In this document: piece by piece, positions 1,847 to 63,642 of the stretch
Position numbering within the stretch: the first letter of the stretch is position 1
How the letters are laid out: each line of letters begins with the position of its first letter
Assembly: GCA_037951105.1 (NCBI GenBank)
Contig: JBAMJV010000905.1
Location: forward strand, 159,001 to 223,000
DNA: 64,000 nt
Origin: Echinarachnius parma
Taxonomy: Eukaryota; Echinodermata; Echinoidea; Clypeasteroida; Echinarachniidae
Direction: 5' to 3'
Notes under the pieces: model-generated
The model's database searches: none
The model's input: the letters and a program-made list of their open reading frames with translations, nothing else
Told to the model about the DNA's origin: nothing
Program-made: the position numbers and the translations under genes

Positions 1847-1847
1847 A

Positions 1848-44575: not shown

Positions 44576-46939
44576 TCACACTTTGTAGCTGACACTCCTC
44601 CTGTTTTTTAGCCTTGAGGACCTCTTTGGCTGCGAGGATCCACCATCATCTTCCATAATGTTGATCACTTCCAGGGGAACTTCCGTCTGCCCCTTTCTTC
44701 TTCGCCCCCTTCTGCTCAGGCATCTCCTGCCTCCTTTTCCTGGACTCGCCTCAGGATCCACTTTGTCATCAGGAACAGATCTCCCCGGAAGCGTCTCTGA
44801 CATGTCTGTGATCTCCGTTGAATTTCCAAGACTTGTTTGGGAACCCTCCTGGTTTTGCGTGGTATGAGTCAGACTTGCTTGAGAATTGTCTTTGTCTAGG
44901 CTTGTCCAAGAGACTTCTTTATCTTTATTTTGAACACTTGCCTCTGAACAAGCTATGTCATCTCTGGAATCCTGTAACCCACTGGCAGTGTTTACGTCAA
45001 GCAACAAAGGTTCCTTGATATCCTGAGTGGTTTCTACGTCCTGGATCTGACATCTGTTCTCCCTCTCTTCAGAAATTTTGTGTATTGCTTCTCCATTGTT
45101 CTTCACAAAGTGTTCCATTTCCTTGATACGTCTCCCTTCCTCACAAAACATAGAATTGTCCACTAGATGATTATAATGATTTTGAATTGACTGAATGGCG
45201 GTTATGGCAGTGGTAGAACATACTGGTGCCAATATTTCCTTGTCTGAGAATGAAGGTGTGTTTGTACTAACTTCATTGTAGCTGCTTTTTTGGCCAGCAG
45301 ATGCTGACTCATCTTTAGGCTCTGATATGTCTTGACAAAGTTGTTTGCTCTCGGAAACAGATCCAGCTCCTTCATGTCTTACTAATGACAAATCTTTGTT
45401 CATTCCCACACCATGCTCTTCTTGACTGTTACAATGCTCCTTCGAATTCTCCTCATCGATTTTACTTTCCGTTGTCTCCGTGATTGAAGGTTTGATCAAC
45501 ATTCTATTTGTCTGGCTGTTGGTTTGTTGATGACCCTTCACGGAATCCTGGATGAGGGGTTCAGATGTTGCCTGCGACTGCGACCAACTCATCTCCAACT
45601 CCTGGAGGCACGAAGCAGAGAGACCTTGGAGGTCGTCAAAGTCTTCTTCACCGTCTCGATCGTTTCTTTCACTTCCTGTTTCTAATTTCTTCTCCTTTGA
45701 ATAGTTTGATGCAACTAGTGGATGTTCTGTAGAATCACAAGTATCCAAACAGCAATCGTCTGTCGCCTGGCGTCGCTGTACCTTACTTGGTAGACATTCT
45801 TCGTCCAACTCGTCTCTGAGCCGCTTTCTCACTGAACTGTCCACATCTCTTCCTGAAGGACCCCGCTTTTGAGAAACGGGTGTCTTGAACCCACGCCTTA
45901 CAGCCACTGGGGTTTGGACGGGCAGCGGGTTCAGTGGAGGGGGGGATGGGATACGGGATAGGAGCTGCGCTCTCCTCGCCGTTTCCCTCTGTTGGGCAGC
46001 CACCCTTGGTGAGATCGCCACCTCCGGTGTAAGTAGTGTTGGAGCTAATGGTGTCCTCAGCCTTTGCATAGAAATATCTTGCCTAGCATTGGGTGTGACA
46101 GTTTTTTGCTCAGGGGTAATTTGCCTTTGAGCTGGGGTCACTGGCCGTACAATTGGGGTCATGGTTCTTGGAGTGTAGCCCGATACTGGTGTTATAGGCC
46201 TCACAGTTTGGGTACCCTGTCTAGAAGCTAGAGTACATGATCTTTGGACTGGGGAAACCACCCTTGGACACCCTTGGATACCAGACGTTGGGACTTGCAT
46301 TACATTCCTTGGAGCTGCGATGATAGTTCTTGGAAATTGGATACCAGTTCTTGGTGCTGGGGTAAAATTCCTTGAAATGTTGCCTGCTGACCTGGGAACT
46401 CCAACAGGAGTCCTCGGAAACTGACCAACGACTCTTCCCGGTGTAAGAACTGGCCTTGAGGGTTGGACAACGTTCCTTGGAGCATGGATGATGGACATTG
46501 AAGTGGCGCCTCCCGACCGGGAGACCTCCCCATGAGCCCACCCAGCATTTTGTCCCACTGGTCTTGCGGCAGATTGATGTCCATACTGTCTTGATGCTAG
46601 AGGAGTGACACTGCCACCCTGGTTGGCAATCCTTGAGTTGGCGCTCGACTGCTGCGGAAAGTTTCTCGGACACGATCTCACCATCATGGACTGGTATCCC
46701 TGGTTCTCGGTACCCGCTGCGCCTGCTGTTGCTGTCGACTGGTGACCAGATCTTGATGGAGTCACGCTGTGGTGACTGCCAGGCGGTGGAACAGATGTAG
46801 AGGTAGGTGCCCACTCTCTCCTCCCAGCAGAATGTTGGTATGGGGTATGTGTACTCGGGTGTGTAGATGGAGATTGGGATGAAGTGTGTCTCAGTTGCTG
46901 AAGCTTCTGCTGCATCCCTTCCACAAATTTTGACACATC
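44576..46939 (-). CDS. BRCA2: BRCA2 last exon: long C-terminal tail with RAD51-binding-like block
   Basis: The exon follows acceptor TTTCACAG and runs 787 codons to TGA at 44578-44576. It opens with [16 protein letters not shown], then a Ser/Pro/Thr-rich stretch and a block of imperfect short repeats rich in PR, TP and RP (about 46090-46500). Next comes [18 protein letters not shown] and [13 protein letters not shown] (about 45855-45970), resembling the vertebrate SRLPLPPPVSP ... KYETPIKKK region that binds RAD51 filaments and carries a CDK site. [19 protein letters not shown] motif at about 45580-45640 resembles the vertebrate ISLLESNSIADEELALI part. The remainder is acidic and low in complexity, ending in a basic segment ([23 protein letters not shown]) likely to act as nuclear localisation signal. 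The tail is much longer than the few hundred residues of the vertebrate one. Confidence 0.93.
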   Translation of the reverse strand, partial: DVSKFVEGMQQKLQQLRHTSSQSPSTHPSTHTPYQHSAGRREWAPTSTSVPPPGSHHSVTPSRSGHQSTATAGAAGTENQGYQSMMVRSCPRNFPQQSSANSRIANQGGSVTPLASRQYGHQSAARPVGQNAGWAHGEVSRSGGATSMSIIHAPRNVVQPSRPVLTPGRVVGQFPRTPVGVPRSAGNISRNFTPAPRTGIQFPRTIIAAPRNVMQVPTSGIQGCPRVVSPVQRSCTLASRQGTQTVRPITPVSGYTPRTMTPIVRPVTPAQRQITPEQKTVTPNARQDISMQRLRTPLAPTLLTPEVAISPRVAAQQRETARRAQLLSRIPSPPPLNPLPVQTPVAVRRGFKTPVSQKRGPSGRDVDSSVRKRLRDELDEECLPSKVQRRQATDDCCLDTCDSTEHPLVASNYSKEKKLETGSERNDRDGEEDFDDLQGLSASCLQELEMSWSQSQATSEPLIQDSVKGHQQTNSQTNRMLIKPSITETTESKIDEENSKEHCNSQEEHGVGMNKDLSLVRHEGAGSVSESKQLCQDISEPKDESASAGQKSSYNEVSTNTPSFSDKEILAPVCSTTAITAIQSIQNHYNHLVDNSMFCEEGRRIKEMEHFVKNNGEAIHKISEERENRCQIQDVETTQDIKEPLLLDVNTASGLQDSRDDIACSEASVQNKDKEVSWTSLDKDNSQASLTHTTQNQEGSQTSLGNSTEITDMSETLPGRSVPDDKVDPEASPGKGGRRCLSRRGRRRKGQTEVPLEVINIMEDDGGSSQPKRSSRLKNRRSVSYKV

Positions 46940-49900
46940 CTGTGAAATCAAAGTACAGTGAAACCTTATTATAATAAGCACCTTGGGCACACTGAATTTA
47001 CCTTGTTATATTAATATTAGGGCTTACAAACAAAGAAATACATAGATCCCAGACCTGTCCAATTACCATGTTATATAATAAGGTACCTTACTGTAACCGA
47101 GCTTGTCATAAAGCAGTTCCACGGTATAAAGTGGGTATATTGTTTTTACAATTATTTACTGATTTAAAAAAAAATTGATATTAGCAATAATTCATGCAGT
47201 CACTTGTTTGTTATACAATGAAAACAAATGTCTAGCTTTTTGTATCACATTACATGATGCCAAATTAATGACAGAAACTACTTTACTGTATGCGATAATC
47301 CTGCTCATGATTTGTAGGGAGAGCAAGACAACAATGTGGATTTTGCAACTCCAATAGAGTTAGTATAGGACCCACCAGTTTCCTGTATGCAATGGGTTAA
47401 TATGTGCATGGGTTATAAAATCCTCATTGAATGAAAGAATGCAACTTACTGATATCTGTGTAAGCTTATATCTGTGCCCTAAGATGTTGAAGGGATGTTC
47501 GTAGAAAGGCTGCTTTTGGGTTTGGAGTGAAGACTGTGTAGTATGATGCAATGGCAGAAGGAATGGGTAATTGGCCGTGGTTTGTGGGGCTAGTGAGGCA
47601 ACATTATGCATAAGGGTTATAAAATCCTAATCGAATGAAACAATGTAACTTACTGATATCTGTGTCCTTAGGTGTTGAAGGGATGTCTGTAGATAGGCTG
47701 CCTTTGGATTCAGGGTAAAGACTGTGTAGTCGGATGCAATGGCAGAAGGAATGGGTATTTGCCCATGGTTTGTGGTGCTTGTGAGGCAACATTATGCCTA
47801 AGGATTAACAATTCTTCATTGAAAGAAAAGAAGGCAACTTACTGATATATGTGTCCTTAGGTGTTGAAGGGATGTCTGTAGATAGGCTGCCTTTGGGTTT
47901 GGGGTGAAGACTGTGTAGTCGGATGCAATGGCGGTAGGAACGGGCAATTGGCCATGGTTTGCAGGGCTGTAGCGGTACTGGAGATTACTCCCTGAGACAA
48001 GAGTTCCTGGTTTCAAGATGTCTTCAAGATTGAGAGTCTGAGGCGAACAAAATATGAAAATATTCTTTAAAAATGTATTTGATACCATCTACCACTTAAA
48101 TAAAACCTAATAATCTTATAAGTCTTATTAATGAAAAAGTGTGATTCTCCAAGAACAGATGAGTAAAATGTTGAAAATGAAGGTAACTTGTGGAGAAAAA
48201 TGGATCCTGGTGTCAACATATCCTCCAGATAGACAGTCTTAATAGAGAGCAATGTCAACAATTTCAAGATGATGCCATTTTATGACTGACATGTTATGGC
48301 ATAGCATACAGTGATTATTTCTTCACAGAGTATTCTGAATAATTAGATGTACATGTCGAGTTTATATCCTGGAGTTCACTTCTTTTGGCATCTAGACTTG
48401 ATTAGTACATAATTCCTTTATTGTAAGCTTCACCTGGTTTGTATGGATGTGTTCAATTTGTTTATAGACAGTCTAACTTCTGACAATAAGCTGCATGCAA
48501 TGTTTCCTTTTCGTTTGTGAAGTTTTTTTGATAGAATGAAAGCTTAATAACAAAGTGGTGGGGGAACTCGACCAGGCGGGAGAACTCAGCCACCTACATG
48601 TAAACATTTGAAGCAAACGGGTTGCGAGGGATCGGACTTCAAAATGCATAAGCGAGTATTGTGTGCATTAGCAGTACTTTGGAATACAGATGGCAAAGTT
48701 CCCCTTCCTCTACAGCAGGGCTCCACATTCACCTTTTTTGTCACTAGACCAGTCGGGCCAGTGAAATAATTTCTTCCCCTTTTCTGGTGGACTGAAAGAA
48801 AATTTACTGGCCCGAAAATTTGATTTCATGAGTAAACTTTTTACAATTCAAAATAAATGTATATCACTCTTAAAAGAAAACAAGATTTTCTCATTTTGTC
48901 AATGTCTGGTTCAAAATCTGCAGCGCCCAATCGGGCCACCAAAATATGACTTTTATACATTTTTGCTGGCCCCATGTGCGATTTCACTGGCCCCGAGCCA
49001 GCGGGCCAGTGCGAGTGTCGAGCCCTGCACTACAGTTTTGGGAATTAGCAAATTGCTCAAGGCATACCTTTAGCCCCATCCAGAACTTGATTGCCATTAG
49101 GTTGCCTTCTTCATCGGCCAAGTAGACAGCAGACCCATGCAGGCTGCCTGGTTGCTTGGCACTAAAATGGAATAAGAGAAAACAAAATTGAACCAATCGT
49201 ATAGAAATGCGTCATTTTAGCTTAATCCTTTTAGTACAAAGTTATGAAAAAGGCTGATGAGTTACCATCATGTGCCCATGGGATTGAGAGGAATAAATCC
49301 CTTGACCACGGGAACCAAATGGGTTGTGTACAAAGTCTATGGAGATTTAATAAACTCGTAGGGAACGGGTTAATGAATCTTAGGTTAAATAAGAGAAGGG
49401 CACCGAGTCACTTTTCGCACTATGTAGATAATCATGTTTAAAGTGTGGGAGCCTTGTACAAACCCTATTTGATCTTCTTTTTATTTAGTAAGAGTATTCC
49501 CAAAGTTAGAATTTATTATTATCTAAAAAATGGGCATCACACTCGGACCTACAAGATGGTTTGCAGAACTTAGCTTGGCAAAAAAAAAAAAAAAAATATT
49601 GGCCTTTTCATCCTCACCCAACAATATTGCTATAGAATGACATTATAATAACCAACATCATCACAGTAATATGGCCAACACCATCATCATCTTAGCAGTT
49701 ATTATCATCACCCATCACCATCATCATTATCATAAAGCGCTTAGAGATGATATAGGCGCTGGGCAATTCCAAGCAAACATTGACATAACCACTGATTTTT
49801 CAAATTCGTTGTACCATAACAAATTTGGTATCAAATGAAAGCTGAAAGATTGAACTTTCCAAAAATGCATTTTGTTTTTGAAAAAAAAAATTGTAAACTA

Positions 49901-52900
49901 TTATTTTATTGTTAATATATAGCATAAATTAATTTTCAGTTATTTTCACAAAACATTCAATTAAATATTAAGCATAAAAGAACTGCGAAAAGGAGTTTTC
50001 ATACAATTTTATTTCAGTGTTGATAGGATCATCATTGCTTCAATTTTTCAGATAAATATCAATTTCGTCATTTTCGCTCTTCGTTCCGCTTCAGTGACTG
50101 TCTCATTTACAGTCATCAATATGTCATGGCGTTACACTAAAAACAGATATTTTTAATATTTCTGGAAAAATATGAATGGGAATGAAATAATTTTTTGTTT
50201 TCTCTGTATTAGCCCATAGGGCTATACTATGGATGCTGAATAGCAGCATTATCTTTTACCAATTATTAATCTAATCAATATCAATTTGGTCACGGCGTTA
50301 CGTTTTGTGTAACGCCGTGACGCTACCTACTGGATTCCCATTGACATAATACAGTAGACATAATCAAATAGTGTAAGATATTTTTTGTAGGTATGCTTGG
50401 GCATTGCTCATGCTATAATTATATGAATAGGGTCAGTTGATAATGTTTCCAACTCAAAGTTACCTGAGTCATGTATGTGTAGGGGTTGTACGTCCGTCTG
50501 TCTGTATGTGCATCTGTGTACGTCCGTCTGTCTGTATGTGCATCTGTACATCAGTGTTCTTTTTTTTGCAATATCTCAAGAATCGTTGGATGGATTTCGT
50601 TCAAACTTTGTACAATCCATGTATTTAGAGGTACGGATTATTGGATATGATTTTGGTCCATGAGGTCAAAGGTCAAAGGTCACATAGCTAACAAATATGC
50701 AAAAATGTTATTATTATCAAGATAGTTTGAGAATCCTTGAAGGATAACATGATAATAATACTGGTATGCGTCAAGTGAAGTATATGACCTGATTAGGGAA
50801 TGGGGTCATGGGAGGTCATAGGTCAACTGGTCAAAATATTGTTGTTGTTTTTTGTTCTCACAATTAAGTTCCAGAATCAATGTTAGAAAGAGTACTGTAG
50901 GTAAAAGACAATTTTCTGAAACTGTTTGGGGCACAGGTCAAAGGTCACTCGGATAATTACCAATTGAAAAACAAACATTTAGTAACTCTGAAATCATGTT
51001 ACATGAAACAAATCACTTGCAAATAAGCACTGCGCAGACAAAAAATTAAACATTTGTATGTTATTTTGAGAAACAAGGTCAAAGGTCAGATGTCAAAGGT
51101 CTCACATTTCATTGTTACATTTAAGTATGTATTTTGGTTTTAATATTTAATGGTTCCATTAACTAACTTCTGAAATAGATAAGAATTTCAGTTATGTCCT
51201 AAAAGATTTTTTTGATCAATAGAGGGCGCTGTGCTGCAAATTTGTGTCATGCGGATGATCATTTAATAGCATCTTGGTTATATCACCCATTCATCTAGTT
51301 CTTTATTGATTCTGGATCACTGCATTAAAATTATATCATATTATTCATCTCTTTAATATCTCCCATATATATAACATGTACAATTCAGAGGTCACGGTGT
51401 TACAGTCACGGCGTTACAGTGCATAGATACATTCATGATATCATATTTACTATGAGCATTGGATTTTTTCAACATTTTTATTTGGATGTTCTAGCTTGAT
51501 GTCTAGTACAAAGAATCAATGTGATAAAAGTGCAAAATGTTCCTGTAGTTCACAGAGTTTACTTAGTTTCTTAGCATGTAAGAAACCTGTGTCTTTTTGC
51601 CGTCACGGCGTTACAGCAGATATTGATATTCATAATTCATAATTTATTGGGAATTTTGGTTTTCTTTCCTATTGTAAATAATTGGTAGGATAGTGGTAAC
51701 AGATGCATATCAAAAGTTGGTTCTAGATATTTAGATTTTATGAGTTATTTGGACTTTCATTGTGAGAAACACCCTCTGACCGTCACGGCGTTTGCTTGGA
51801 ATTGCCCCGCTATATAAATCAAACCTTTTATCTTATTCTTCATCATCATCATCATCATCATATTAGGCACTATATAAATCGAACCTATCATCATCGTCAT
51901 CATCATCATCATCGTCATCATCATCATCATCATCATTCTGGTCCCCAATGTCGCCACAACCACTACTACCACCACCACATTCTCCTCACCTCTGATCCCC
52001 AGTAGAAACCACCAAACCGACCACATCCATCTCTCCGTAGGCTGCTTGCCTGTACCCCTGATTCAGCCCTCGAATGGAGGCGACACACCTCGGCACGAAC
52101 ATCAACATCAACATCAACATTACCATTGCGGCAGCTACCACCACCACCACCATCATCATCCTTCCCATCACTACCACCACCACCACCACCACCACTTAAT
52201 AATACCATTGGCATTACTTACCTCTGATCCCCGGTAGAAACCACCAAACCGACCACATCCATCTCTCCGTAGGCCGCTTGCCTGTACCCCTGATTCAGCC
52301 CACGAATGGAGGCGACACACCTCGGCACGAACATCAACATCAGCATCAACATTACCATCGCCGCAGCTGCCACCACCTCCACCATCACCAACGCAACCGC
52401 AACCACCACCACCACCACTTAATAATACCATCGTCATTACTTACCTCTGATCCCCGGTAGAAACCACCAAACCGACCACGTCCATCTCCCCGTAGGCTGC
52501 TTGCCTGTACCCCTGACTCAGCCCACGAATGGAGGCGACACACCTCGGCATGAACACCCTGTCCATGTTGAGGCTTGCTGATGGCAGCTCTTCATAGCGG
52601 GTAGATCTGGTGGATGCTAGCTGGGTGGCTGCCATTCCAGGCACACTCCTAGATTGAAAAGAGGAAACATGGGGATAGATTTGTTTGGATTGAGATTAAA
52701 TATATCTACAAAACCTTATCGTGGTGGCTGATTCATTCCATGAATTTAGGCGACAAATTTCATCTTGAACACCTTTTCCAAGTTGTGGAGTGCTACTGGC
52801 ATTTCTTCATAGCGAGTAGATCTGGTGGATCCTAGCTGGATGGCTGCAAGCCTTCCCACACACACTTCTGTATTTGAAGCTAAGATTTGTCTTTGAGTCT

Positions 52901-55900
52901 ACGATTTGTTTTCCAAGCTTTTGATCTTTGCAGGTAAAACATTTTTTTCTTTCTCAACTTGTTGTTTGTAATACGTTTAATCCATCTAGATATACAATTA
53001 ATTTCATGTACACTTTAATAGGTAATAAGCTCAATTGCCTTAGAATGACACTTTCACGATTGTTTGTATAACGAATGCTCCTCAGGGAGTAGAGATGGTA
53101 CAAATCATTATGCATATTTGAATTGCACCTGATGGCTGCAGTAATTATAAAAAATAAAAGTTGTGCTTGATACACACCGTATTATCAGGCTTGGGTCTTT
53201 GGAAGACATTTAATATACCTAAATAAAATGGTCTTCAACAGATTCAATGTTGGAGCATTTAATACTAGTCAATTAATATGTTGTGCAAAACAAACATTAA
53301 TCGGTTCTCTACTAGATTTTGCAATCCTCATTGAGTAAATACAGGGGCGACCAGGTTCCCCTAGGCAATGGGTTAAAGGGGTAGTTCAGTTTTGGTTTTG
53401 AGGGTGCTTTTTTTAAATGCTTTTTGAATGAAAACAGCCCTGTAACTTGGCTGTTTATACGTTTTACTACCATTTAAGCATCATTGAATTATAACTGTTA
53501 ATTTTTAATGACAAGCTTTAGTTAATACAATCTAACTTGTTTTACCAAAACTGTACTATCCCTTTAAATGACACAAAATATACATGGCAAGACAGGAAAT
53601 GGCACCATTCTAACCTGGCAGCTGATGTGATCAAGCCAGTCACTCTGAACCTCTTCCCCTCCCTCAGTTGAGCAACGAGGTCATCGCTGGGTGCCCAGAT
53701 CGTCAGAAAAGTGGTCTGCTGCCATCTACTGGCTGCAGGTTTGTAGTCGCCGATGCGCAGCTTGAGCAAGGGGACTACACTGCGCTTGAAGGAACCCTGT
53801 TTTAGAGAGTGGAAAAATACATTTAATGAAGAAGATGATAAATGTTTCATGTAAATAGTTCAAACTTGAACTGGACGAAATTGCACTGGAATCATAATCA
53901 TCTTTACTATCACTAGCACCTTCATCTTCATCGCTGTCATTATCATCATCTTCAACTTTATCATCAACAACATCATCATGAACATCATTATAATCTTCAA
54001 TATCACCACCATCATCATCGTTATGATTGATATCGTCATCGTCGTCATCATCATTGTCATAATCTTCATCATCAGCTTTATCATCAACAACATCATCATC
54101 ATCAACATCGCTGTCATCTTCGTAATCATCATGATCATGTTGATGATCATGATCATCTTCATCATCAACATCATCATCGCCATCAACATCATCATCACTG
54201 TCATCATTGTAATCATCATCATCACTATTATCATCTTTGCTGTCATTGCTATCATCAGCTTAATCATCATCATCATCCACGTCATCGTACCTGCTTGGTT
54301 TGGTCTCCCAGTGCCTGATCGAATGCTGCCCGCAAGTCTTGCTGCTTGACATCGCACTGAGACCGTTGGTAGTCCTGCAGCCGCATCCTCTGACGATCGC
54401 TCAATAGGGACTACCATTGAAAAAAAAGAAAAAAAAAGAAATTAATTATCATTAATTTAATGTTTGTAGTAATTTTTTTGAGGAATTGAAATTGAAAGGA
54501 GAAACTATGACAAATGGCAGTCTTGCAGCATCACCCTCTGCCAATAACTCAATAGGAACTACCAATGATAAAGACAGATAAAGAATAAAATCATCATTAA
54601 TTTATTGTTTGAAGCAATTTTTGTGAGAAATTGAAATTGAAAGGAGAAATTAGGACAAATGGTAGTCTTGCAGTATCCTCCTCTGACTATTGCTCAATAG
54701 GGATGACCAATTACATAACAGATACAGAATTAAATCATTATGTATGTTTACATTTTTTGTGGGGATTTGAAATTGAAAGAAGAAATAAGTACAGTTGATC
54801 AAAACTTTGTTTTATTTCACTTATTGGCAGGCACTACTGGATGATCATAACCAGATTAATTATAATAACAGAAATTCTTGTATCGCACATATAAGGGTCT
54901 CTATGGGCATATTAAGAAGCGAAACATAGTAAAAGGGGAAAGAATGAATACAGAGACAGAATAGAAACCGAGAGGAAGAATGAAAGGCTGACACAAGCTT
55001 ACACCAAGAAAAGAAGTACATTTCAACCTCTGATACTGATACCCCCCCCCCCCCCCCCACTCCCATCTATATGTGACCCGCTATAGCAAAACCCAGCACT
55101 TGTCAGTAATTCATGTTTTGAATAAATTGGCATTTTAAGTTCACATAATGTGTGTAAAAGACCTATGATTGTAAAATTGAAACAATCATATATTCGCCAA
55201 TTATTGACCAATTAGTTACAACAAAGCATCAAATGAAAGCTTGTGATGAGGCCTTTCTAATGCTTTACACACCCTCATTCATGCCAAGTATCCATATTGC
55301 ACCTGGGTGGGGAGCAGCAATGTGGATAAAGTGCCTTGCTGATGGATTGTACTGGGGCATCGATCTGGGTTCGAACTCGGCTCTCGTGCTTTGCAGTCAA
55401 TCGCCTTTCAGATCTTGCCACAACACCTCCCCACCAAACTAGGTAATTTTACTAGTACAAGCCTTTTACATTCTATTTTTAACCCTGATACCAGATACCC
55501 AATAGAACATGGTAAATTTCATGGGCCAAAGCTCCTTGTTAAAATGAGGTTCCAATGTATTTCTCCTTAAAACGTAAAATGTCACAATATATATTTTGTA
55601 AATTGTATAAGAAATATCTAATACATATTTCATTGATGTTCTACCAACAACGTATGAAAGAGTTAGCATAACTGTGATTGTATAACATGTATTTTGATTG
55701 TTTTACGTTAATCACATGATCCCTTGTTAGAAGGGCTAGCTTAACTAGCATAATGTGCTATTTTCTATCCTTTTTACCAATTGATGAGTAATTGTTAAAT
55801 ATTGTACTTAAATTTTTTGTTGGTGAATTGGTAAATAAACAAATTCAATTCAATTCAATTCAATGTCCTTGTATTCCTGTATTACCTGGACTGCACCTGG

Positions 55901-58705
55901 GTCCAAGGCATCTTCCATAGCATTATACAGCTCTTCTCCAGTGCTTAGGCTCTCTACATTGGACAGGCTGCTGCTTCTACGACTATCTCTCTTCCTTTTG
56001 CCCCCTGAAAAAGAGCAGCAATTTAAACAAAACAAAGTTTTAAAATGTCATCGTTTGAGAAAGAGAAGGGTGCTAAGACAATTTTGTACTTAAAGTTTGG
56101 GATCTGTGAATATAGAAACCACATTTAATAATTGCATTGACATTTTTTTATATAAACGTCTATTTATTATGTAGATTCTTGTTCTTTATTGCACCATACA
56201 ACAATATTCATTCATGTTTTACTACAAGAATGTACCTACACAATGTTAATGCATTATGATTGTTAAGAATGACTTGGTAGCGTTAAAGGGACAGCCCCTC
56301 TTTTGCAAGCCAAATTTCAAAAGTTGCGAGGTTATTGTCTTATATGAAAGAAAATGTTATTTAATAGCATGCCTGAACAAATTAGGGCTTGAAATCTCTT
56401 TTTCGTGGAGTTATAGACCTAAATCTAATAAACCATCGTCCAACAGTTAATTGTGCAGTATACGTGTGTTCACCCGTCGAGAAAGTTCGCTCACGGATTC
56501 CAAGGAGTGCCACAGCGCTATGCGTGACCCGCGCTAGCTACGTGACCCGCGCATACATAACAATAGGTAAGCGATTACTAAGCAAAATAACCAAACCTCG
56601 CTTAAACTGGCTACATGTACATTCTTCATTTTTGAGATCTTTTTCCGTGACATACCTTTACAAATGTCGGCTTCACAATACCTATACCAGAATAAGTACA
56701 ATATTGTTGTAATATTATGCTAAATCAGTTAAACTCCTTTACTGACCGATATATAGTTCGATGGAGGGACGCATTCGTTTTTCATTCGTAGAATCCAAAT
56801 TACAGGGCTGTTCGATCTGATTTTGTGTGTGTGTGTGTGTTACATTCATCCCCATCCGTCAACTGGAAACTGTTCAGACGTTTTGTAAAAGAGAGGACTG
56901 TCCCTTTAAGAAGTGTTGAAGAATTCCCAACGATATATCAATCAAATCATGTGTCCTACCTTTTAGTGATTGTTTGACTTCCAACTGTCACTGTTTTTTG
57001 GCATACAGCTCCTCCATTTTGTTCTGCTTCTGCTTTTAATGCAGGCCTGCCGCTGATAATTTCTCTTCAGAAATGTAAACACTTGTAAACTTTTCCTAAT
57101 TCCCTACAATATATCAATAAAATCATTTGTCTTACTTTTAGTGATTGTTTGGCCTCAAACTGTCTCTGTATCTGTGCATGTATTTGTGCATGTATTGGCA
57201 TGCAAGACTGCCGCTTAAAACTTCTTTTCGCACATTTAAACACTTGTAAACTTTCCTAATTCCCTACAATATATCAATCAAATCATGTGTCTTACCTTTC
57301 AGTGATTGTTTGGCCTCAAACTGTCTCTGTATCTGTGCATAGAGCTCTTCCATTTTGTTGTGCTTCTGCTTGGCATGCATAGTTGCTGCCTTACTCTCCT
57401 CGCGGGCGTTACGGAACACAGTGCCTCCCTCTGCTAATTTCTCCATGAACTGAAAGTAAGAACAAAGTGTAAAATGAAGAAAAAAAAAGTGCAAACAAAT
57501 AAAGTGCTGGCTTCCACTACCTCGACCAGTATTCAAATATATCTATAAGTACTGCTTCTAAGTTAGAGGATTTCCTTCAATAACAGAGAAGAGCTAAATT
57601 AGGCCATTTTGCATAACTTATCATGTCATTGGGATGACAGTGATGGTGGATGACATCCAACTAGCCCACCATCCAGGAACAGAGATGTGATGGAGAGGGG
57701 GATGGTCCTGGGTCTAGCTTGATGGATATGGAATTACTTTGCCTAAAGTGATGGTCATGATATGTGATGGCGATATTAGAGAGGGTTGACGCTCCTTTTA
57801 CAACAATTATTGAATGTGACTTAGTTACGCTCACCCTACCTGCATTGAGTATGCTCTCAGTATAACCACATCCACACATCCAACTAGCCCTCCATCCAGG
57901 AACAGAGATGTGATAGAGGGAGGGGGAAGGGGCAAGGGTCTAGCTTGACGGATATTGAATTACTTTGCTTAAAGTGATGGTCATGATATGTGATGGCGAT
58001 GCTAGAGAGGGTTGACACTCCTTCTACAACAATTATCGAACAAGACTTATTTAAGCTCATCCTGCATGTACCTGCATGGGGTATGCTCTCAGTATAACCC
58101 CATCCACACATCCAACTAGCCCTCCATCCGGGAACAGAGATGTGATGGAGCATGGGGGAGGGGGGGGGGGGGAGGGAACTGGGTCTAGCTTGATGCAGAT
58201 TGAATCACTTTGCCTAAAGTGCTGGTCATAATGAGGATACTAGAGAGGCAAACTGTCCATTCTACAACAATTATTGAATGTGACGAATATAAGCTACTTC
58301 CTACCTGCATTGGGTATGTTCTCAGTATAACCACATCCACACATCCAACTAGCCCTCCATCCGGGAACAGAGATGTGATGGAGAGAGGAAAGGGGCGGGG
58401 GTCTGGCTGGAGCCCCAGTCTGGCGTCAAAGCGAGCACGGCGGGTCGAGTTGGCAGTGATCTTCAGCATCAGCTCTGGTGGGATCTGGGGGGGGAAAAAA
58501 GTTAACGCATGACTTTGATAACATGATTGAATTCTTGATTGCAATCAAAACTTCCTAATTCATAATAATGATCTATTTATAATCATCATTACCATCATCT
58601 TTATCATAACCTTTATCGTTATCATAACCATCATCGCTGTTATCATCACCATCACCACCTCATTATCGACATCGTCATTGTTGTCATCATCATAATCATC
58701 ACCAT

Positions 58706-58739
<34 letters not shown>

Positions 58740-61700
58740 CATCATTATCATCCATCATCACCATCATCATCCATCATCATCATCATCCATCATCATCATC
58801 CATCATCACCATCATCATCATCATCACTATACACTACCTCTAGTGGGGAGCATGCATCTTGTGATCCCACCAGCTCAGCCCCGTAGATACACAGCTTGGT
58901 TCCACATGGGATCTTGCCTTTCCTGACCAGGTTAGCCAGGGGCTGGTCAATGACCGCGGGGACGCTGTACCATCCATCCGTCAGTTCCAAGGTGGGATTA
59001 TTGGTGGGCACCTAAAACATCAAATTAGAAGGAAAAACATTCTTAACCCATTCATCAATGGAACCTTTTATAAAAGGTTCCTGTGAGTCCAGTTCTTTTG
59101 TAACCCCATGACTACGGGAACCTGGTGGGTTGTGTGCAAAGTCTATGGAGATTTCAGAAACTCTAAGGGCACGGGTTACTAATACAATATCTTTACATAT
59201 TAGCCCTAAATATGCAGTGCTTCCATAGTACTTTAAATGTACAAATGAAATCAAAATACACATCAAAGTACAGTACAACTTGTTTGAAGGAACATACATT
59301 CTTCTTCTTCTTCTTCTGTAAACTTTAAACAAACTCTACAAGTGGGAAATGCTATATTACTGTTGCAGGCATGTGGCGGTTAGAATGTGTGCGCGTAATT
59401 GGGGAGCCCGTGGTGGGCACTCCGGATGAAATCTATCATATTTATCTTACAAAAATGTCCCTGAAATGATAGTAATGATTGTAATGATGTGGCTTGGCGT
59501 GCATCATCTGGTAAGAGATTCCATTCTGCCAGATTTTGTGGTAGGAAAGATTAATATCCTACCTTTTTGCCATCGTTGCCTTGCCCCTTGTCCGGGGTCT
59601 GTTCTCGGCTAGTCACCGACGCCACGCAGAGGACCATTCTCCGGGACGGGGCGTCATCCCTCTCAAGTATCTTTCTTAGGGCGGGGCGTTGGGAATGATC
59701 GATCTCTCTGTCATAGCGATACTTCAGCTGAAGCAGCACAGTGTTTGGTGTCAGGAGCCTGTACAGAAATTACAAGAACATTAACTGGTTTATATCTGAG
59801 CAAATAACTACTACTATTACTATTAATTAAGCAGAAGCATTCAAGATTTAAGATCACAAGGCAACGCTATGAATTTTATCCATATTAATATCTGCACGTC
59901 CGCAATTTTGCAGTGGATGTCCCTTACCATGCAATCTATGTTGTTCTTTTTTTCATCTGTTCGGGACTGCCCAAACAATGAGCAGTAAAACGGAAGAATT
60001 TAAAAGGGTTTTGAGACTTCAAAGAAATTACCTGAGATGCTTCTTATTTCTGCTATTAAACAGTGGAATCAAGAGCAGTTTATTGCCATTGCAGAAATCT
60101 GCAGTTTCACTTTTCTTAAATAATACACGGTGGAATTAAAATCAGCCTGCAATAATAGCCTGCAGTAACAATTGGAAGTTCTTTAGGCACATTTTATCAT
60201 TCCTCCAGAAAGGGCATCCTCCGGAGGGCAGTTAGCTGGGAGTGATCAATGGGAGTAATGGCAATCAACCCATTGCTTTACAGGAACCAGGGCCCATATT
60301 CATAAAAGCGTGAGCGGGAAGAGTTTACACGTAGACACATTATGTCCTAGCCCCCCCCCAAAAAAAACAAAAAAAACAACAACATACATCTCCCCCTCAT
60401 AAGTCACTCCTCTCTCAAGCCACTGGCTTTTTAAATCTGATTTCCTGACACATTTTACCTTGTAAATATTGTACCTTTTATGAGAAATAAATAAATGAAT
60501 GAATGAATGAATGAAGTACTGCGCCCCTCTACATCATTAAATCCGAGCTCCGCTTCGTGCCTATATAGACATGACAAGGGAACAGATTCTCAATAGCAGC
60601 GTCTCAAGCCAAAACAAAAGTGTACAGAAAGCTTATCAAATCACACCAAACTTCAGACGTGAGCTATTAAATATGTCAACAAAAGGGCAACGAAAGGCAA
60701 ATTACTCTGAAGATGAAAACTTGTTTTTAGCTGACAAATACGAGGAAGTTTGAGAAATTCTTGATGGAAATCACAAGGATGCAGAGACAAACAAGAAAAA
60801 GACTGATGCTTGGGCAACTATTCTGAACCAACATTGCGCCAGCTTTGTTGCGGTCGAGAGATCTTTGGATGATCTAATAAACAGATTATGCAAATTCAAA
60901 TCGTAATCAAGAGATCGTGTGTCTGCCATGAAAAAGTCCCAAAATGCAAACTGGAGGAGGGAAAACCAGCTAAAGAACCTAATTCAGCACAACAAGAAAT
61001 CATCAACCTTTGTGAAGATACCCCAAGCTTCAAAGGATTAATAGGGATTGAGTCTGCAGTAGGACCAACCAAGAGATTGATAGCTTGTGATGATGGAGGT
61101 TAATAAATTATATACGCACATACTCCATATCAAACAGTAAGAAGCATTGTTTCTCCTTTATTTTTGTTTTCTTCCAATTTTTTCTCTTTCAATATTGATA
61201 AGACACAATTACCCCTGGGAACCAAATGTTTTACAAGCTTTGCTTCTTTTTGGTTCCCCCATATGTCACGTTATGTTAATTACAAACAAATGGTTGATTA
61301 TGTAATATTTATTGTATGTTAGTCTTCTGTGTATTTTATATTGTATTTCGTTTATGAATATATTGTTTGTTTGTATATTTATGGAAATGAATTAAAATTA
61401 AAAAAACAAATCAAAATCAAATTAACGTTTCATTTTCTATTTATTGTATCTCGATTTCAAGGTGATAGTTTAATCTATTGTCAGTGGTAATAATAATTGG
61501 TTAAAGGGCTGGCCTATGATACTCGGAATAGCGCTATATAAATAAACGTTTATTATTTATTCAATTAATGATTGTTGTTTTTTGTTGCAGAATTAACAAC
61601 ATGTTCTGTTTATATTTTGTGTATTTGTTTTTGTTTTTAATACAGATGATGATGTCATCGAGCTACCTGCGGAAGTGGAAGTTCCAGTGAATCAAACGCC

Positions 61701-63642
61701 GTCTACATCCAAGTCGACCGCGTGTCCGCCAAGTAAGAAAATGAAGACACAGCACAGGAACATTGATGGGCTTGTAGACATTGAACTTGACAATGCATTG
61801 ATTAAGCAAGAAAACTTGCGCTTGAAACAAGAAAAGCTCAAGCTACAGATTGAACCCATAAACATAATCAAAGATAAGCGAGGGCAGTTAACTGTGAGCA
61901 AAGACGCTTAATGGAAAGACCGACCACTGGACAATTTTCTTGTACAAAGTGAATGGGCAGCGCGCGATGTCCTCAGTTAATGCGCGCAATTACAGTCCTG
62001 ACGTCACAATGCGAATTGCACAGGGGGTTCCCCACATATTTATTGTTGCAGTTGTTGTTGTTGCTGCTGGCTTAATGTGAATGACTCGGCTATTTTTAGC
62101 CTAGCAACAACACTATTTTTGGAAATAAATCAGCTGATTAAGCGCACTGATTTTATAATGCGCACACATACGCAGTTATCATTGGTCAATTATCCCACAA
62201 AGCAGTATCATATTGGGAAGAACAAAGTCGATTGGTTTGTCGGTGCGTATATTACAGACAGTGTGCGTGATAATATGCAAATATCCAAATATGCCATTGC
62301 CTGTTTATTGTGCACGTTCTAGATCTGTGAATTTAACAATTCTTTATTTAGAAAATGTGAGTGAAAATCTCTAAAAGCTATCGACTATAATTTTTAAATA
62401 TTTTTACCTATACAAAGACAATATTGAATTAGAAAAACAATGTGTTCCCCAGGTGTACCCAACTTGGAGATAAGCTGATTTTCAATCGTCATACTAGCCT
62501 GAATTTGCCGAGTTTAAGTAAGTACGTTCTGATCCTTACTTTTGTTTAAATTAATACTAACAAAGGGAATATTTGTTCCAAAAAAGCTATCGACTATAAT
62601 TTTTAAATGTTTTTTCATTAATTTAAATGAACAAGATTCAGTACTGTAGCCAAACCTCTGGGTGTACCCAACTTTCTCTTTAGCTCGATTTGAATCTTCA
62701 TTCTGTTTGAAGGAACATCGCTGCGCGGCCGCTAGTGATCTGTCTTGTAATTCTACAGTCTTTGCTGTGAGTCAGGGGTGTCAATATTTTTTCTTTTGAC
62801 TTTAATTTATTACAGCATGTTTGTACCTATTCGTGTAAACAAACACTTGTTGATTTTAAAGAGTAAGATATTAAAAGTATGAGGAAGTCGCCATGCCAGT
62901 TGGTCAATTTTGTACGGCGTCTACCTATTTAACGTTTTGGATTTGTATTTGGATGGGGTCCCCTGCTATCATATGGAAAGTACCTGATGCATAGTACTGC
63001 AGTGCTATGAGAACCAGTTGGTAAGGTAGGAGTGCGGAGCTCCTCCTTGTTGCATGTTTTATATCAGGTGTTATGATATCTGTGATTTCTATTATACCCT
63101 CATGCGAAAACCTATATCGCAGGTTTTTTCTATCGCAAAAAATGTGCTCCCTACACATGGCACGCTTTAATGCACCTTATTCTAATATCCTCCTCCCCAT
63201 GTTTACGATCGCACGACAAGCAGTGACACAAAAAAACGGACTTTGGCCGTTTTTCCTGGTATTAAGTTCCTCAGGATTTTGAGTAAATTTTATCAATTTG
63301 TTCAGCTATCATGTGTTTAACAGATGTTTTCTGAACTGGCTCGCCCCAGCCTCAGGGTAAAGACTGCATGTCAGAGCAAAATTCACAGCATGGGTTGTTC
63401 ACTTAAAGATTAGAATAGACTGGGTTGGATCTCTTGAATGAAATTTGGAGCAACTTAAGAGTCAACTACGGCCGAAGCTTTTAAGCCTTAAAAGAATGTT
63501 TCCATTAACTCACCTTACTCCAAACTGGTGAGGGTAGGCAACCTCCATGCTGGCAAGCTTCCATACAATCCAGCGGTAGTGGTTGAACACCCAGTCCTCC
63601 TTCAGGAGCTTAGGATCTACACCAGGGGTATCAAGGAGAGCA
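44576..63642 (-). CDS. BRCA2: BRCA2 homologue, 3' half (12 exons, gene span within window)
   Basis: Twelve exons join in frame on the minus strand: 63642-63514, 59758-59563, 59011-58838, 58484-58305, 57449-57296, 56004-55886, 54410-54291, 53796-53615, 52648-52445, 49161-49068, 48037-47843 and 46939-44576. All introns are GT-AG and all phases agree, giving about 1,369 residues before the stop. The product aligns by eye with vertebrate BRCA2 from the helical domain to the C-terminus, including [61 protein letters not shown] and LMAIKFW. In known BRCA2 this region binds DSS1/SEM1 and single-stranded DNA and helps load RAD51 during homologous recombination in the nucleus. The 5' part (BRC repeats, N-terminus) is outside the window. 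Oddities are an unusually long last exon and tandem partial copies of exon edges at five exons. The identity is secure; whether the gene is intact upstream cannot be seen. Confidence 0.95.
46954..47095. mobile_element. 142-bp MITE with TACAGT inverted ends next to BRCA2 last-exon acceptor
   Basis: The left end TACAGTGAAACCTTATTATA faces a right end whose complement reads TACAGTAAGGTACCTTATTA. TA at both outer ends suits a Tc1/mariner or pogo-type target site. The left end lies only about 14 bp from the acceptor AG of the last exon (exon start 46939). Confidence 0.7.
47440..47800 (-). repeat. tandem copies of BRCA2 exon k 3' part plus intron start
   Basis: Copies end at 47654 and 47450, 189 and 204 bp apart from the real end at 47843 onward. 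The nearer copy has an uninterrupted frame identical in layout to the exon ([20 protein letters not shown]) and donor ATATCA/GTAAGT. The farther copy carries a short insertion that introduces TAA before the donor. The shared intron part includes GTAAGTTGC and GGCAACATTATG blocks. Confidence 0.87.
47843..48037 (-). CDS. BRCA2: BRCA2 exon k: OB3 end
   Basis: This is 65 codons in phase 0, acceptor TTCGCCTCAG and donor ATATCA/GTAAGT. It encodes [20 protein letters not shown], then a stretch with [20 protein letters not shown]. The pattern agrees with the vertebrate IIKPHMLIAASNLQWRP ... GDFSVFSASPKEGHFQET segment. Two tandem copies of its last ~118 bp follow downstream, and a decayed copy of its start lies upstream at 48185-48248. 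Confidence 0.92.
48185..48248 (-). repeat. decayed copy of BRCA2 exon k 5' edge
   Basis: Read on the minus strand this gives [12 protein letters not shown], parallel to [12 protein letters not shown] at the start of exon k. It lies about 200 bp upstream of the functional acceptor, so exon k has relics on both sides. Confidence 0.7.
48716..49027. mobile_element. hAT-like MITE, 312 bp, with 8-bp target duplication
   Basis: The ends are CAGGGCTC and GAGCCCTG. The flanking octamers are CTCTACAG (48708-48715) and CACTACAG (49028-49035), 7 of 8 identical, as expected for hAT elements. The interior repeats GGGCCAGTG/CACTGGCC. It sits in the BRCA2 intron 40 bp after the donor of exon j. Confidence 0.75.
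49068..49161 (-). CDS. BRCA2: BRCA2 exon j: OB3
   Basis: This is 94 bp, acceptor CATTTTAG and donor CTAAAG/GTATGC. The first base completes an AGT serine codon, then [19 protein letters not shown] and [12 protein letters not shown] follow. This matches [21 protein letters not shown] of vertebrate OB3. A hAT-like MITE begins about 40 bp into the downstream intron. Confidence 0.95.
49660..49735. repeat. short interrupted ATC tract
   Basis: CATCATCATC/ATCACC repeats in the BRCA2 intron lie directly outside the left end of the 2-kb inverted-end element. 49162-49660 shows nothing else I can name. Confidence 0.8.
50289..50321. repeat. perfect 13-bp stem hairpin GTCACGGCGTTAC
   Basis: GTCACGGCGTTAC at 50289-50301 is followed by a 7-base spacer and its exact complement at 50309-50321. 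The same motif recurs singly at 51405 and 51602, with near copies at 50123, 51391 and 51782. Confidence 0.9.
50450..51100. repeat. AGGTCA-rich repeat region (same family as 42.9-44.0 kb)
   Basis: It begins with a duplicated ACGTCCGTCTGTCTG block, then ATATCTCAAGAATCG and GAGGTCAAAGGTCAAAGG. Four clusters of direct AGGTCA-like half-sites follow, at about 50660, 50815, 50935 and 51080. The order of blocks mirrors, in reverse, the array ending at 43980. Confidence 0.65.
51835..52200. repeat. ATC and ACC microsatellites in BRCA2 intron
   Basis: ATC runs occur at about 51841-51862 and 51890-51938, with ACC/ATC runs at 52085-52110 and 52136-52200. They border and separate the exon i copies. Confidence 0.9.
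51985..52345 (-). repeat. tandem copies of BRCA2 exon i 3' half plus intron start
   Basis: Two copies of the exon i 3' half end at 52222 and 51990, 223 and 232 bp from the real exon end and from each other. Both are nearly identical to the exon over about 110 bp, keep the reading frame [20 protein letters not shown] and keep a GT donor (GTAAGT and GTGAGG). On the 5' side each abuts a GTTGAT/ATCAAC hexamer tract and then ACC/ATC microsatellite, so the exon-like part starts abruptly. These are the best preserved of all the exon-edge copies. Confidence 0.9.
52445..52648 (-). CDS. BRCA2: BRCA2 exon i: OB2 end and start of OB3
   Basis: This is 204 bp, acceptor TTCAATCTAG and donor CAGAG/GTAAGT, phase 2 to 2. 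It encodes [36 protein letters not shown] and [14 protein letters not shown]. These match vertebrate ANIQLAATKKTQYQQLP and the EVDLIGFVVSV start of OB3. Two downstream copies of its 3' half and one decayed upstream copy are present. Confidence 0.94.
52720..52875 (-). repeat. decayed upstream copy of BRCA2 exon i
   Basis: This stretch parallels exon i over about 150 bp. Matching blocks include GCGACAAATTTCATC against GCGACACACCTCGGC, TCTTCATAGCG, GTAGATCTGGTGGAT and TAGCTGGATGGCTGC. It lies upstream of the real exon in transcription order, is more divergent than the downstream copies, and has frame breaks. Confidence 0.8.
53373..53567. mobile_element. family B TTAA-flanked MITE-like element
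   Basis: It is bounded by TTAA at 53373 and 53564, with ends AAAGGGGTAGTTCAGTTTTG and the complement CAAAACTGTACTATCCCTTT. It is a short, internally deleted member lying 48 bp beyond the donor of BRCA2 exon h. Confidence 0.75.
53615..53796 (-). CDS. BRCA2: BRCA2 exon h: Tower return and OB2 core
   Basis: This is 182 bp, acceptor AAAACAG and donor GCCAG/GTTAGA, phase 0 to 2. It encodes [20 protein letters not shown], then [20 protein letters not shown] and [11 protein letters not shown]. It matches the BRCA2 VWKLRI ... [22 protein letters not shown] region, the strands that close OB2 after the Tower. Confidence 0.94.
53880..54285. repeat. degenerate ATC/GAT trinucleotide microsatellite
   Basis: About 400 bp of interrupted ATC repeats in the BRCA2 intron between exons g and h give long but meaningless Ile- or Met-rich reading frames on both strands. 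The repeat reaches almost to the exon g donor at 54290. Confidence 0.95.
54291..54410 (-). CDS. BRCA2: BRCA2 exon g: second Tower helix
   Basis: This is 40 codons in phase 0, acceptor AATGGTAG and donor AAGCAG/GTACGA. It encodes [18 protein letters not shown] and continues through [13 protein letters not shown]. This is a charged, Gln-rich helix at the place of the vertebrate [20 protein letters not shown] helix. Similarity is moderate and the placement rests on exon order and phase. The intron upstream holds two tandem copies of the acceptor edge. Confidence 0.85.
54411..54810 (-). repeat. tandem copies of BRCA2 exon g acceptor edge and upstream intron
   Basis: Exon g's first ~40 bp and ~100 bp of upstream intron recur with the TCCTG/TCTTG marker at 54373 (real), 54521 and 54666, spacings of 148 and 145 bp. 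Shared blocks include GCTCAATAGG, GAAATTGAAAG and GACAAATGG. The middle copy retains an AG acceptor (TTGGTAG) and an open exon-like frame. In the outer copy the AG is lost. Confidence 0.83.
55042..55058. repeat. C homopolymer, 17 bp
   Basis: A C17 run in the BRCA2 intron between exons f and g; otherwise 54810-55885 shows no coding. Confidence 0.95.
55886..56004 (-). CDS. BRCA2: BRCA2 exon f: Tower
   Basis: This is 119 bp, acceptor TTTTTCAG and donor GTCCAG/GTAATA, phase 1 to 0. It encodes a basic [10 protein letters not shown] stretch followed by [17 protein letters not shown], which matches the vertebrate QDGAELYEAVKNAADPA region at the Tower. The intron upstream contains a family C MITE-like element. 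Confidence 0.9.
56283..56909. mobile_element. family C TTAA-flanked element
   Basis: The left end TTAAAGGGACAGCCCCTCTT faces a right end AAGAGAGGACTGTCCCTTTA, with TTAA at 56283-56286 and 56906-56909. No coding region is visible. A (GT)n tract lies at about 56824-56840. It sits in the BRCA2 intron between exons e and f. Confidence 0.75.
56925..57240 (-). repeat. tandem partial copies of BRCA2 exon e 3' edge plus intron start
   Basis: The motif AGTGATTGTTTG, the complement of the exon e end, occurs at 57301 (real exon), 57141 and 56965, spacings of 160 and 176 bp. Each copy continues into the same intron start (TTCCTAATTCCCTACAATAT and TATATCAAT blocks). One copy has donor AAAAG/GTAGGA. The 56.96-kb copy carries an in-frame stop in the exon-like part. 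Confidence 0.82.
57296..57449 (-). CDS. BRCA2: BRCA2 exon e: OB2 into Tower stem
   Basis: This is 154 bp with acceptor ACTTTCAG and donor AAAG/GTAAGA, phase 0 to phase 1. It encodes [20 protein letters not shown], then [17 protein letters not shown], matching the BRCA2 segment where OB2 passes into the first long Tower helix. Two degraded tandem copies of its 3' edge lie downstream. Confidence 0.93.
57655..58172 (-). repeat. tandem partial copies of BRCA2 exon d 3' edge plus intron start
   Basis: Two copies of the exon d 3' end sit in the following intron, with copy ends at 58072 and 57840, spaced 233 and 232 bp from the real exon end at 58305. Both keep an open frame ([13 protein letters not shown] and equivalents) and a GT donor (ATGCAG/GTACAT and ATGCAG/GTAGGG). 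A fourth, truncated fragment lies near 57655-57745. The copies begin inside the exon near an AGACCC shared with intron sequence, which suggests a microhomology junction. None has a convincing own acceptor, so they are probably intronic relics. Confidence 0.85.
58305..58484 (-). CDS. BRCA2: BRCA2 exon d: OB1 end and start of OB2
   Basis: This is 60 codons in phase 0, acceptor CCCCCCCAG and donor ATGCAG/GTAGGA. It encodes [36 protein letters not shown] and [15 protein letters not shown]. The intron position after ...YPMQ agrees with the vertebrate gene, where the corresponding exon ends after ...YPIQ. The last ~100 bp of the exon plus the start of the intron recur downstream as two further copies and a fragment (see 57655-58172). 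Confidence 0.95.
58560..58832. repeat. ATC/ATCC microsatellite before BRCA2 exon c donor
   Basis: Degenerate ATC repeats with CATCATCC blocks fill the intron between exons c and d and run up to within about 5 bp of the donor of exon c. Confidence 0.93.
58838..59011 (-). CDS. BRCA2: BRCA2 exon c: OB1 core
   Basis: This is 58 codons in phase 0 between acceptor TGTTTTAG and donor CTAGAG/GTAGTG. It encodes [19 protein letters not shown] and [18 protein letters not shown], the signature of BRCA2 OB1. The intron immediately downstream begins with an ATC/GAT trinucleotide repeat, so reading past the donor gives a spurious acidic tail. Confidence 0.95.
59563..59758 (-). CDS. BRCA2: BRCA2 exon b: helical domain/OB1 junction
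   Basis: The acceptor is CTGTACAG and the donor AAAAAG/GTAGGA, giving 196 bp. The first base completes an AGG arginine codon begun in exon a. The sequence reads [20 protein letters not shown], then a basic stretch, ILERDDA and MVLCVASV, which matches the known [17 protein letters not shown] region and the first strands of OB1. It ends in phase 0. Confidence 0.94.
60571..61911 (+). pseudogene. broken two-exon Myb/SANT-like (Harbinger-type) DNA-binding protein gene
   Basis: Opposite in direction to BRCA2 and inside its intron. A likely start at 60673 gives [20 protein letters not shown] and a tryptophan-containing helix region ([11 protein letters not shown]), the layout of the Myb/SANT-like domain found in PIF/Harbinger accessory proteins and NAIF1-type host genes. 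TGA interrupts at 60751 and TAA at 60904. A frameshift near 60910-60965 then leads into [19 protein letters not shown] donor GGAG/GTTAAT at 61098 joins in phase to an acceptor TTAATACAG before 61646. Exon 2 ends in a Lys/Glu/Leu-rich coiled-coil-like tail ([14 protein letters not shown]) and a stop at 61911. Two stops and a frameshift make it a pseudogene. The retained intron argues against retrocopy origin. No transposase is seen nearby. The family call rests on domain layout only. Confidence 0.7.
62365..62700. repeat. duplicated ~212-bp block
   Basis: AAGCTATCGACTATAATTTT occurs at about 62373 and 62586, and GGTGTACCCAACTT also recurs about 210 bp apart. It is a two-unit diverged tandem duplication in the BRCA2 intron. 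The rest of 61912-63513 shows no coding I can support. Confidence 0.75.
63514..63642 (-). CDS. BRCA2: BRCA2 exon a: end of helical domain
   Basis: This 129-bp exon follows acceptor TTCTGCAG and ends at donor AAG/GTGAGT. It starts with the last base of a codon and ends two bases into the next. It encodes [13 protein letters not shown], then [17 protein letters not shown], matching the C-terminal part of the BRCA2 helical domain, which contacts OB1 and DSS1 in the known structure. The preceding exon lies beyond 64000. The upstream intron, 63690-64000, is a degenerate GAT/ATC repeat. Confidence 0.93.

What the first reader, a model, noticed from the sequence alone, without database searches (positions are those of the whole stretch)
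47440..58484. Five BRCA2 exons each carry about three tandem copies of one exon edge plus intron
Exons d, e, g, i and k are each accompanied by two (sometimes three) extra, diverged copies of one exon end plus the adjacent intron, with separate periods of about 233, 165, 146, 225 and 190-205 bp. Sequences differ between the five cases, so these are independent events in one 11-kb stretch. Each event spans just one splice junction, so the surplus copies fall into intron and the coding sequence survives. I infer recurrent small tandem duplication filtered by this rule. I do not know of a described BRCA2 gene with this pattern. Copies are too diverged to be assembly errors.
Basis: partly seen in the sequence, partly recalled or inferred. 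Interest (0 to 1): 0.85.

Follow-up and report, generated by a model that had tools for sequence, protein, structure and literature searches.

The report
Duplicated exon edges in urchin BRCA2
In a sea urchin's BRCA2 gene, five exons carry extra worn-out copies of one exon end plus neighbouring intron, a pattern published for lancelets as 'mirages' that also shows up at one of the same BRCA2 exon ends in a lancelet gene model, so exon edges may attract such duplications.

Summary
Confirmed. The window holds the DNA-binding half of a BRCA2 gene (minus strand, 12 exons, in phase, no stops). Exons d, e, g, i, k each have 2-3 tandem copies of one exon edge plus intron. An exon-blind scan finds these five arrays and no other with units of 40 bp or more in the gene, bar one 33-bp repeat pair. 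Corrections: exon i also has an older copy of its other (acceptor) edge; exon k perhaps a relic. The animal is a sea urchin: 64% identity to Diadema, Lytechinus and Strongylocentrotus, 46-47% to six of seven Branchiostoma entries. This is the phenomenon published in lancelets as mirages, here in an echinoid. A Branchiostoma floridae BRCA2 model carries 11 in-frame copies of the same exon-d edge, but with 6 of 22 tested edges hit here that coincidence alone is about 1 in 4. The genome-wide test could not be run. New member of a known kind.

The parts
44579..63642 (-). BRCA2 3' half: exons a 63642-63514, b 59758-59563, c 59011-58838, d 58484-58305, e 57449-57296, f 56004-55886, g 54410-54291, h 53796-53615, i 52648-52445, j 49161-49068, k 48037-47843, l 46939-44579 (followed by a stop)
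   Evidence: GT-AG at every internal junction, 1369 aa, 0 stops; Pfam helical, OB1, Tower, OB2 above cut-off, OB3 and TR2 below it on single exons; PDB 1iyj E=2.6e-139
57653..58411 (-). array d: donor edge of exon d plus intron; extra exonic copies 58169-58072, 57948-57840, 57722-57653 (truncated)
56922..57379 (-). array e: donor edge of exon e plus intron; extra exonic copies 57179-57135, 57043-56960
54367..54793 (-). array g: intron plus acceptor edge of exon g; extra exonic copies 54703-54660 (acceptor AG lost), 54556-54515 (AG kept)
51985..52556 (-). array i, donor side: donor edge of exon i plus intron; extra exonic copies 52333-52222, 52101-51990
52728..52866 (-). separate older copy of the acceptor edge of exon i (exon bases 2-136, 79%), acceptor AG kept, stop inside
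47405..47968 (-). array k: donor edge of exon k plus intron; extra exonic copies 47772-47654, 47591-47468
48205..48237 (-). possible relic of the acceptor edge of exon k (33 bp, 79%; reads [12 protein letters not shown] where exon k reads [12 protein letters not shown])
   Evidence: score 31 equal to the best of 200 controls; one search shows DML and PGS in Lytechinus and Strongylocentrotus

Best explanation
These are mirages in the sense published for lancelets: minisatellite-like tandem duplications of an exon-intron border, here at five exons (six edges) of an echinoid BRCA2. Shown: in each array the working exon is the copy at the array's edge that is continuous with the rest of the exon (first copy for donor-side arrays, last copy for acceptor-side ones), the other copies lie in the intron, most keep their splice dinucleotide, and joining the working exons alone gives an intact protein. 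Inferred: a local duplication of about 150-230 bp, made by repair or replication slippage, is later expanded by unequal exchange or conversion. It does no harm when it spans one junction because the spliceosome keeps the proximal complete exon. Junction-spanning duplications look over-represented beyond what coding survival alone would give, so something at exon edges either promotes them or helps retain them. The copies have no evident function.
For: Six of 22 exon sides with copies above all controls. Exon-blind scan: six repeat clusters in the gene, five of them arrays, all at junctions. Unit-placement null P(one junction | one or intronic) 0.19-0.23, 5/5 p=4.3e-4; 7.9e-4 when repeat-rich intron is excluded. 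Exon-to-copy identity is higher in the exonic part (732/808, 90.6%) than in the intronic part (437/516, 84.7%), while copy-to-copy identity is alike (342/387, 88.4%; 154/175, 88.0%), as expected if only the working exon is constrained (arrays d, e, i, k only). Donor GT kept in 8 of 8 full copies. Published precedents: globins BflGb6 and BflGb9, Adh3, TnC, PGBD5 in Branchiostoma, with units of 150-160 bp in BflGb6. A B. floridae BRCA2 model repeats the exon-d edge 11 times.
Against: The lenient null (whole array span touching any exon) gives only 0.016-0.035, and the region was chosen because of the pattern, so the junction excess is not proven. One of seven exon-to-copy comparisons runs the other way (e exon against copy 3: exonic 82.1%, intronic 92.1%), and two copy boundaries were set one or two bases off. 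Differences unique to a copy lean to third codon positions (22 of 40), which plain neutral decay of copies does not give; with three sequences this may be changes of the working exon before the last duplication. No composition or DNA-folding feature separates hit from unhit edges (6 against 17, all p above 0.4). No transcript data.
Confidence: 0.72

Rival explanations
1. One reading: small tandem duplications fall anywhere; those that break the protein are removed, so the survivors at exons span one junction.
For: Explains the geometry and the intact reading frame. Needs no special mechanism. With the region picked for its look, a chance cluster cannot be dismissed; the lenient null gives 0.016-0.035.
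Against: Predicts 3.4-4.4 wholly intronic units per junction unit; the exon-blind scan shows none as an array in the gene, only a 33-bp direct repeat pair at 62373/62582. With that pair counted as an intronic event, 5 of 6 still has p=0.002.
Confidence: 0.25
2. The copies are alternative or once-functional exon ends kept by selection, for example spare donor sites or alternative splice forms.
For: 8 of 8 donor copies keep GT with consensus scores of 6-8 of 9, against 6-8 for the working sites; copy-branch differences lean to third positions, 22 of 40.
Against: Reading on to a copy donor hits a stop 1-39 codons past the exon end in 8 of 8 cases, and the intact g acceptor copy reads through stops. 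Copies of donor edges start inside the exon and so lack its acceptor. Copy-to-copy exonic and intronic identities are alike.
Confidence: 0.08
3. Assembly error or collapsed haplotypes.
For: Short tandem repeats are hard to assemble; the authors of PMC3087553 note that one lancelet globin mirage was aberrantly assembled in the draft genome (passage).
Against: Copies differ from the working exon by 2-21%, array by array, with different periods and sequences; the working exons are intact and in phase.
Confidence: 0.04
4. Intron creation by tandem duplication of an exonic AGGT segment, or insertion of an introner-like element.
For: Both can leave repeated sequence at exon edges; intron gain through a boundary-crossing duplication is reported in a potato gene (abstract).
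Against: The working junctions join in phase without use of copies. The five arrays share no sequence with each other outside simple repeats, unlike a mobile element. Intron positions of relatives were not compared.
Confidence: 0.05

Closest known systems
[quoted passage not shown] Adh3, TnC, BflGb6, BflGb9, PGBD5)
   Same: Tandem units spanning an exon-intron border, on donor or acceptor side, copies keeping many but not all splice signals, protein unaffected; units of 150-160 bp in BflGb6 and 157 bp in BflGb9 are close to this range.
   Different: Described only in Branchiostoma in what I could read; here an echinoid, five exons of one gene, units of 145-233 bp. Published Adh3 (10-72 bp) and PGBD5 (60 and 108 bp) units are shorter. 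Length polymorphism, reported there, is not testable here.
Branchiostoma floridae BRCA2 model LOC118419819 isoform X2 (P0126)
   Same: Repeats the 3' edge of the same exon d (DGGMVGCVDVTVLRSYPMQ) 11 times, with seven further residues between copies.
   Different: Unit 31 codons (93 bp), nearly identical copies, annotated as coding; in a B. floridae x japonicum model the first form joins the next exon directly. That the seven residues are read-through intron is inferred, the DNA was not seen.
[quoted passage not shown]
   Same: A duplication that crosses an intron-exon boundary.
   Different: There a new intron arises; here the copies appear to be intron filler only.

Membership tests
mirage | tandem repeats whose unit spans an exon-intron border | tested here: met
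   five arrays, plus a sixth edge at exon i with one extra copy
mirage | either the 5' or the 3' exon border can be duplicated | tested here: met
   donor edges d, e, i, k; acceptor edges g, i
mirage | many, not all, copies keep AG/GT signals | tested here: met
   donor GT 8 of 8 full copies; g acceptor 1 of 2; i acceptor copy 1 of 1
mirage | normal mRNA splicing despite the repeats | not testable with these tools
   only inferred from intact, in-phase exons
mirage | length instability between haplotypes or somatic cells | not testable with these tools
   one assembly only
mirage | published host range, lancelets (a matter of where it was seen, not of definition) | tested here: not met
   window groups with four urchin sequences at 100/100 support; 64% versus 46-47% identity
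introner-like element | similar element at many unrelated introns | tested here: not met
   arrays share no sequence within the window apart from microsatellite; other loci could not be searched
intron gain by tandem duplication | new intron bounded by the duplicated segment | tested here: inconclusive
   no working junction uses a copy; intron positions of relatives not compared
BRCA2 | helical, OB1, Tower, OB2, OB3 and TR2 domains in order | tested here: met
   by single exon (TR2 26.6 bits against cut-off 27; two OB3 pieces 17.4 and 20.9 against 24); continuous 598-residue match to 1iyj
BRCA2 | BRC repeats | not testable with these tools
   the 5' half lies beyond window end 64000

The most novel reading that the evidence does not exclude
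Exon-intron junctions are intrinsic hot spots for tandem duplication in at least two deuterostome phyla, hitting the same BRCA2 exon-d donor edge independently in a sea urchin and a lancelet, and feeding introns with exon-derived tandem sequence; the process would be a general engine of intron growth and potential new exons rather than a lancelet oddity.
Probability: 0.3. Interest if true: 0.75.

Novelty: new member of a known kind. Interest (0 to 1): 0.55.

Why it matters
In the papers I could read, mirages are reported gene by gene in lancelets, with the mechanism called unclear. Finding 6 of 22 tested exon edges hit in one urchin gene, with no wholly intronic array of similar unit size beside them, makes a testable claim: duplication or retention is tied to the exon edge itself. 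A genome-wide count in any echinoid would decide it, and would bear on how introns lengthen and how new exons or introns may start. It also warns annotators, since one lancelet BRCA2 model has the copies written in as protein.

Tried and rejected
Lancelet origin was my first guess from the mirage literature and was rejected. Hairpin energy, GC content, GG runs or strand skew at hit edges: no difference (6 hit against 17 other edges; the acceptor of exon l was among the 17 though not tested for copies). Polarising changes onto exon or copy branches did not separate them (exon branch 5/2/8, copy branches 8/10/22 by codon position; Fisher p=1.0; arrays d, e, i, k only). Exonised copies in relatives: of the 235 proteins fetched show tandem peptide repeats in or near the DNA-binding region: B. 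floridae, and a 76-residue repeat in a frog, Nanorana parkeri, over the exon-k region, not followed further. A third search keyed on the B. floridae array lists 120 of 191 hits; apart from the query itself (759 bits) the best is 93 bits, so no listed protein has a comparable array. The three other arrays in the window (22341-22929, 33670-34108, 43004-43886) touch no gene I found, but only 7 of the 71 ORFs of 75 aa or more listed for positions 1-44500 were scanned, with three from intron a-b; none of the ten had a Pfam hit at E 0.01. tRNA and Rfam scans of the window: none. The first uniqueness check was masked in a way that hid repeat hits and was redone. Papers: PMC3087553, PMC3902484 and PMC2206037 seen as passages, PMC4974935 as outline with abstract; all others only as search listings.
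Full report
What is there. The window carries the 3' half of a BRCA2 gene on the minus strand. Twelve exons (a-l, 63642 down to 44579) have GT-AG at every internal junction and join in phase to 1369 residues without a stop (boundaries chosen by hand). Pfam finds the helical, OB1, Tower and OB2 domains above cut-off and OB3 and TR2 below it on single exons; the joined product aligns over residues 1-598 to the BRCA2 structure 1iyj, E=2.6e-139.

The arrays. Aligning each of exons a-k against the intron on each side (up to 3 kb; 22 sides; 200 first-order Markov resamplings each) gives copies above every control on six sides: d donor, e donor, g acceptor, i acceptor, i donor, k donor; k acceptor just equals its best control. 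Exonic identities run from 79 to 98%.

Exon i is hit at both edges: two 95% copies of its donor edge downstream and one 79% copy of its acceptor edge upstream at 52728-52866. Exon k may have an old acceptor-edge relic at 48205-48237; its reading [12 protein letters not shown] shares DML and PGS with Lytechinus and Strongylocentrotus where the window's exon k has DIL and PGT, which fits an old frozen copy, but the score is borderline.

The organism. A search with the DNA-binding region against full-length proteins puts the window among echinoids: 64% identity over the whole region to Diadema setosum, Diadema antillarum, Lytechinus variegatus and Strongylocentrotus purpuratus, 49-52% to three sea stars, 46-47% to six of the seven Branchiostoma entries (the 62% listed for B. 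floridae X2 covers only 39%, because of its repeat). A tree holds the window with the four urchin sequences at 100/100 and leaves its place among them open. It is therefore a sea urchin; the order is not known.

Is it chance? An exon-blind scan of the window for repeats at 40-1200 bp offset, with units of 12 bp or less masked, gave 11 clusters; six lie in the gene, five of them arrays at exons, the sixth a 33-bp pair at 62373/62582. Shorter-unit repeats do lie wholly in introns, for example a 30-bp unit twice at 50487-50547 and the ATC tracts. If a unit may fall anywhere that leaves the protein intact, either wholly in intron or across one junction, the chance of a junction is 0.19-0.23 per array and 4.3e-4 for five of five; with the 33-bp pair counted as a sixth, intronic event, p is 0.002. 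Excluding repeat-rich intron gives 7.9e-4. A lenient test, whole array span touching any exon, gives 0.035 for the gene and 0.016 without the last exon. These p-values are nominal because the region was reported for its look.

What the copies are. In exon-to-copy comparisons the exonic part is 90.6% and the intronic part 84.7% identical; in copy-to-copy comparisons they are 88.4 and 88.0% (arrays d, e, i, k; intronic parts missing for i copy 3; two copy boundaries one or two bases off). Six of the seven exon-to-copy pairs with both parts agree; e exon against copy 3 runs the other way. So on the whole only the working exon looks constrained. Against this, differences unique to a copy fall on third codon positions 22 times of 40, and the exon branch (8 of 15) does not differ from them; with three sequences these include changes of the working exon before the last duplication, so I read it as serial copying from the working exon, not as proof of function. 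All 8 full donor copies keep GT; reading on into them meets a stop 1-39 codons past the exon end in 8 of 8; the one intact g acceptor copy leads through stops.

What is known. [quoted passage not shown] The globin authors call the mechanism unclear and note that both boundaries can be duplicated. A duplication crossing an intron-exon boundary that created an intron is described in potato (abstract of PMC4974935). My searches for the pattern in sea urchins or outside lancelets listed no such report (listings only, open-access library only, so absence is weak). The huntingtin paper PMC2206037, seen as passages, mentions tandem repeat elements in the lancelet scaffolds without placing them at exon borders.

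A link between phyla. The Branchiostoma floridae BRCA2 model P0126 repeats GSLC(P/T/A)DGGMVGCVDVTVLRSYPMQ 11 times at 31-residue spacing, with seven further residues after each copy but the last, which joins the next exon directly. This is the donor edge of exon d, the same edge as array d here. A B. floridae x japonicum model joins the first form straight to the next exon, so I infer that the seven residues are intron read through; the lancelet DNA was not seen. With 6 of 22 tested edges hit in the urchin, a single lancelet array would land on a hit edge about one time in four, so the coincidence supports but does not prove a hot spot. The unit sizes, 93 against 223-233 bp, differ, which favours separate origins. 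Among the 235 proteins only this one and a frog model (Nanorana parkeri, exon-k region) show tandem repeats in this region.

Mechanism. Shown: geometry, intact exons, copies that cannot extend the protein far. Inferred: local duplication by repair or slippage, growth by unequal exchange, survival because the proximal complete exon is used. Not explained: why junctions and not mid-intron. Fold energy, GC content, GG runs and skew do not distinguish hit edges.

Verdict.

Noticed in passing
window 43004-43886: About six copies of a 151-bp unit rich in TGACCTT heptamers, with a diverged inverted relative at 50518-50706 inside a BRCA2 intron; looks like a dispersed repeat family, not an exon array.
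   Followed up: partly
window 22341-22929: About four copies of a 152-bp unit containing GGGTTTGAACCCACGACC, which resembles a tRNA B box (recalled); no tRNA or Rfam match.
   Followed up: partly
window 33670-34108: Overlapping tandem arrays of 76 and 122 bp, 92-96% alike, outside any gene found.
   Followed up: no
window 60541-61908, + strand: Open stretches in BRCA2 intron a-b that look like a Myb/SANT-type transposon-derived gene (recalled resemblance); no Pfam match for the three pieces scanned.
   Followed up: partly
window 4400, 7085, 9740, 19947, 25277, 39814: Runs of 19-31 G or C, several close to dispersed repeats.
   Followed up: no
window 1844-2228, 2467-2830, 18631-18880, 31800-32170, 33203-33590, 41839-42188: A dispersed repeat family in both orientations, about 67-85% alike, probably a transposable element.
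   Followed up: no
protein P0148, from residue 3538: Frog Nanorana parkeri BRCA2 model repeats about 76 residues over the exon-k region; duplication or annotation error.
   Followed up: no
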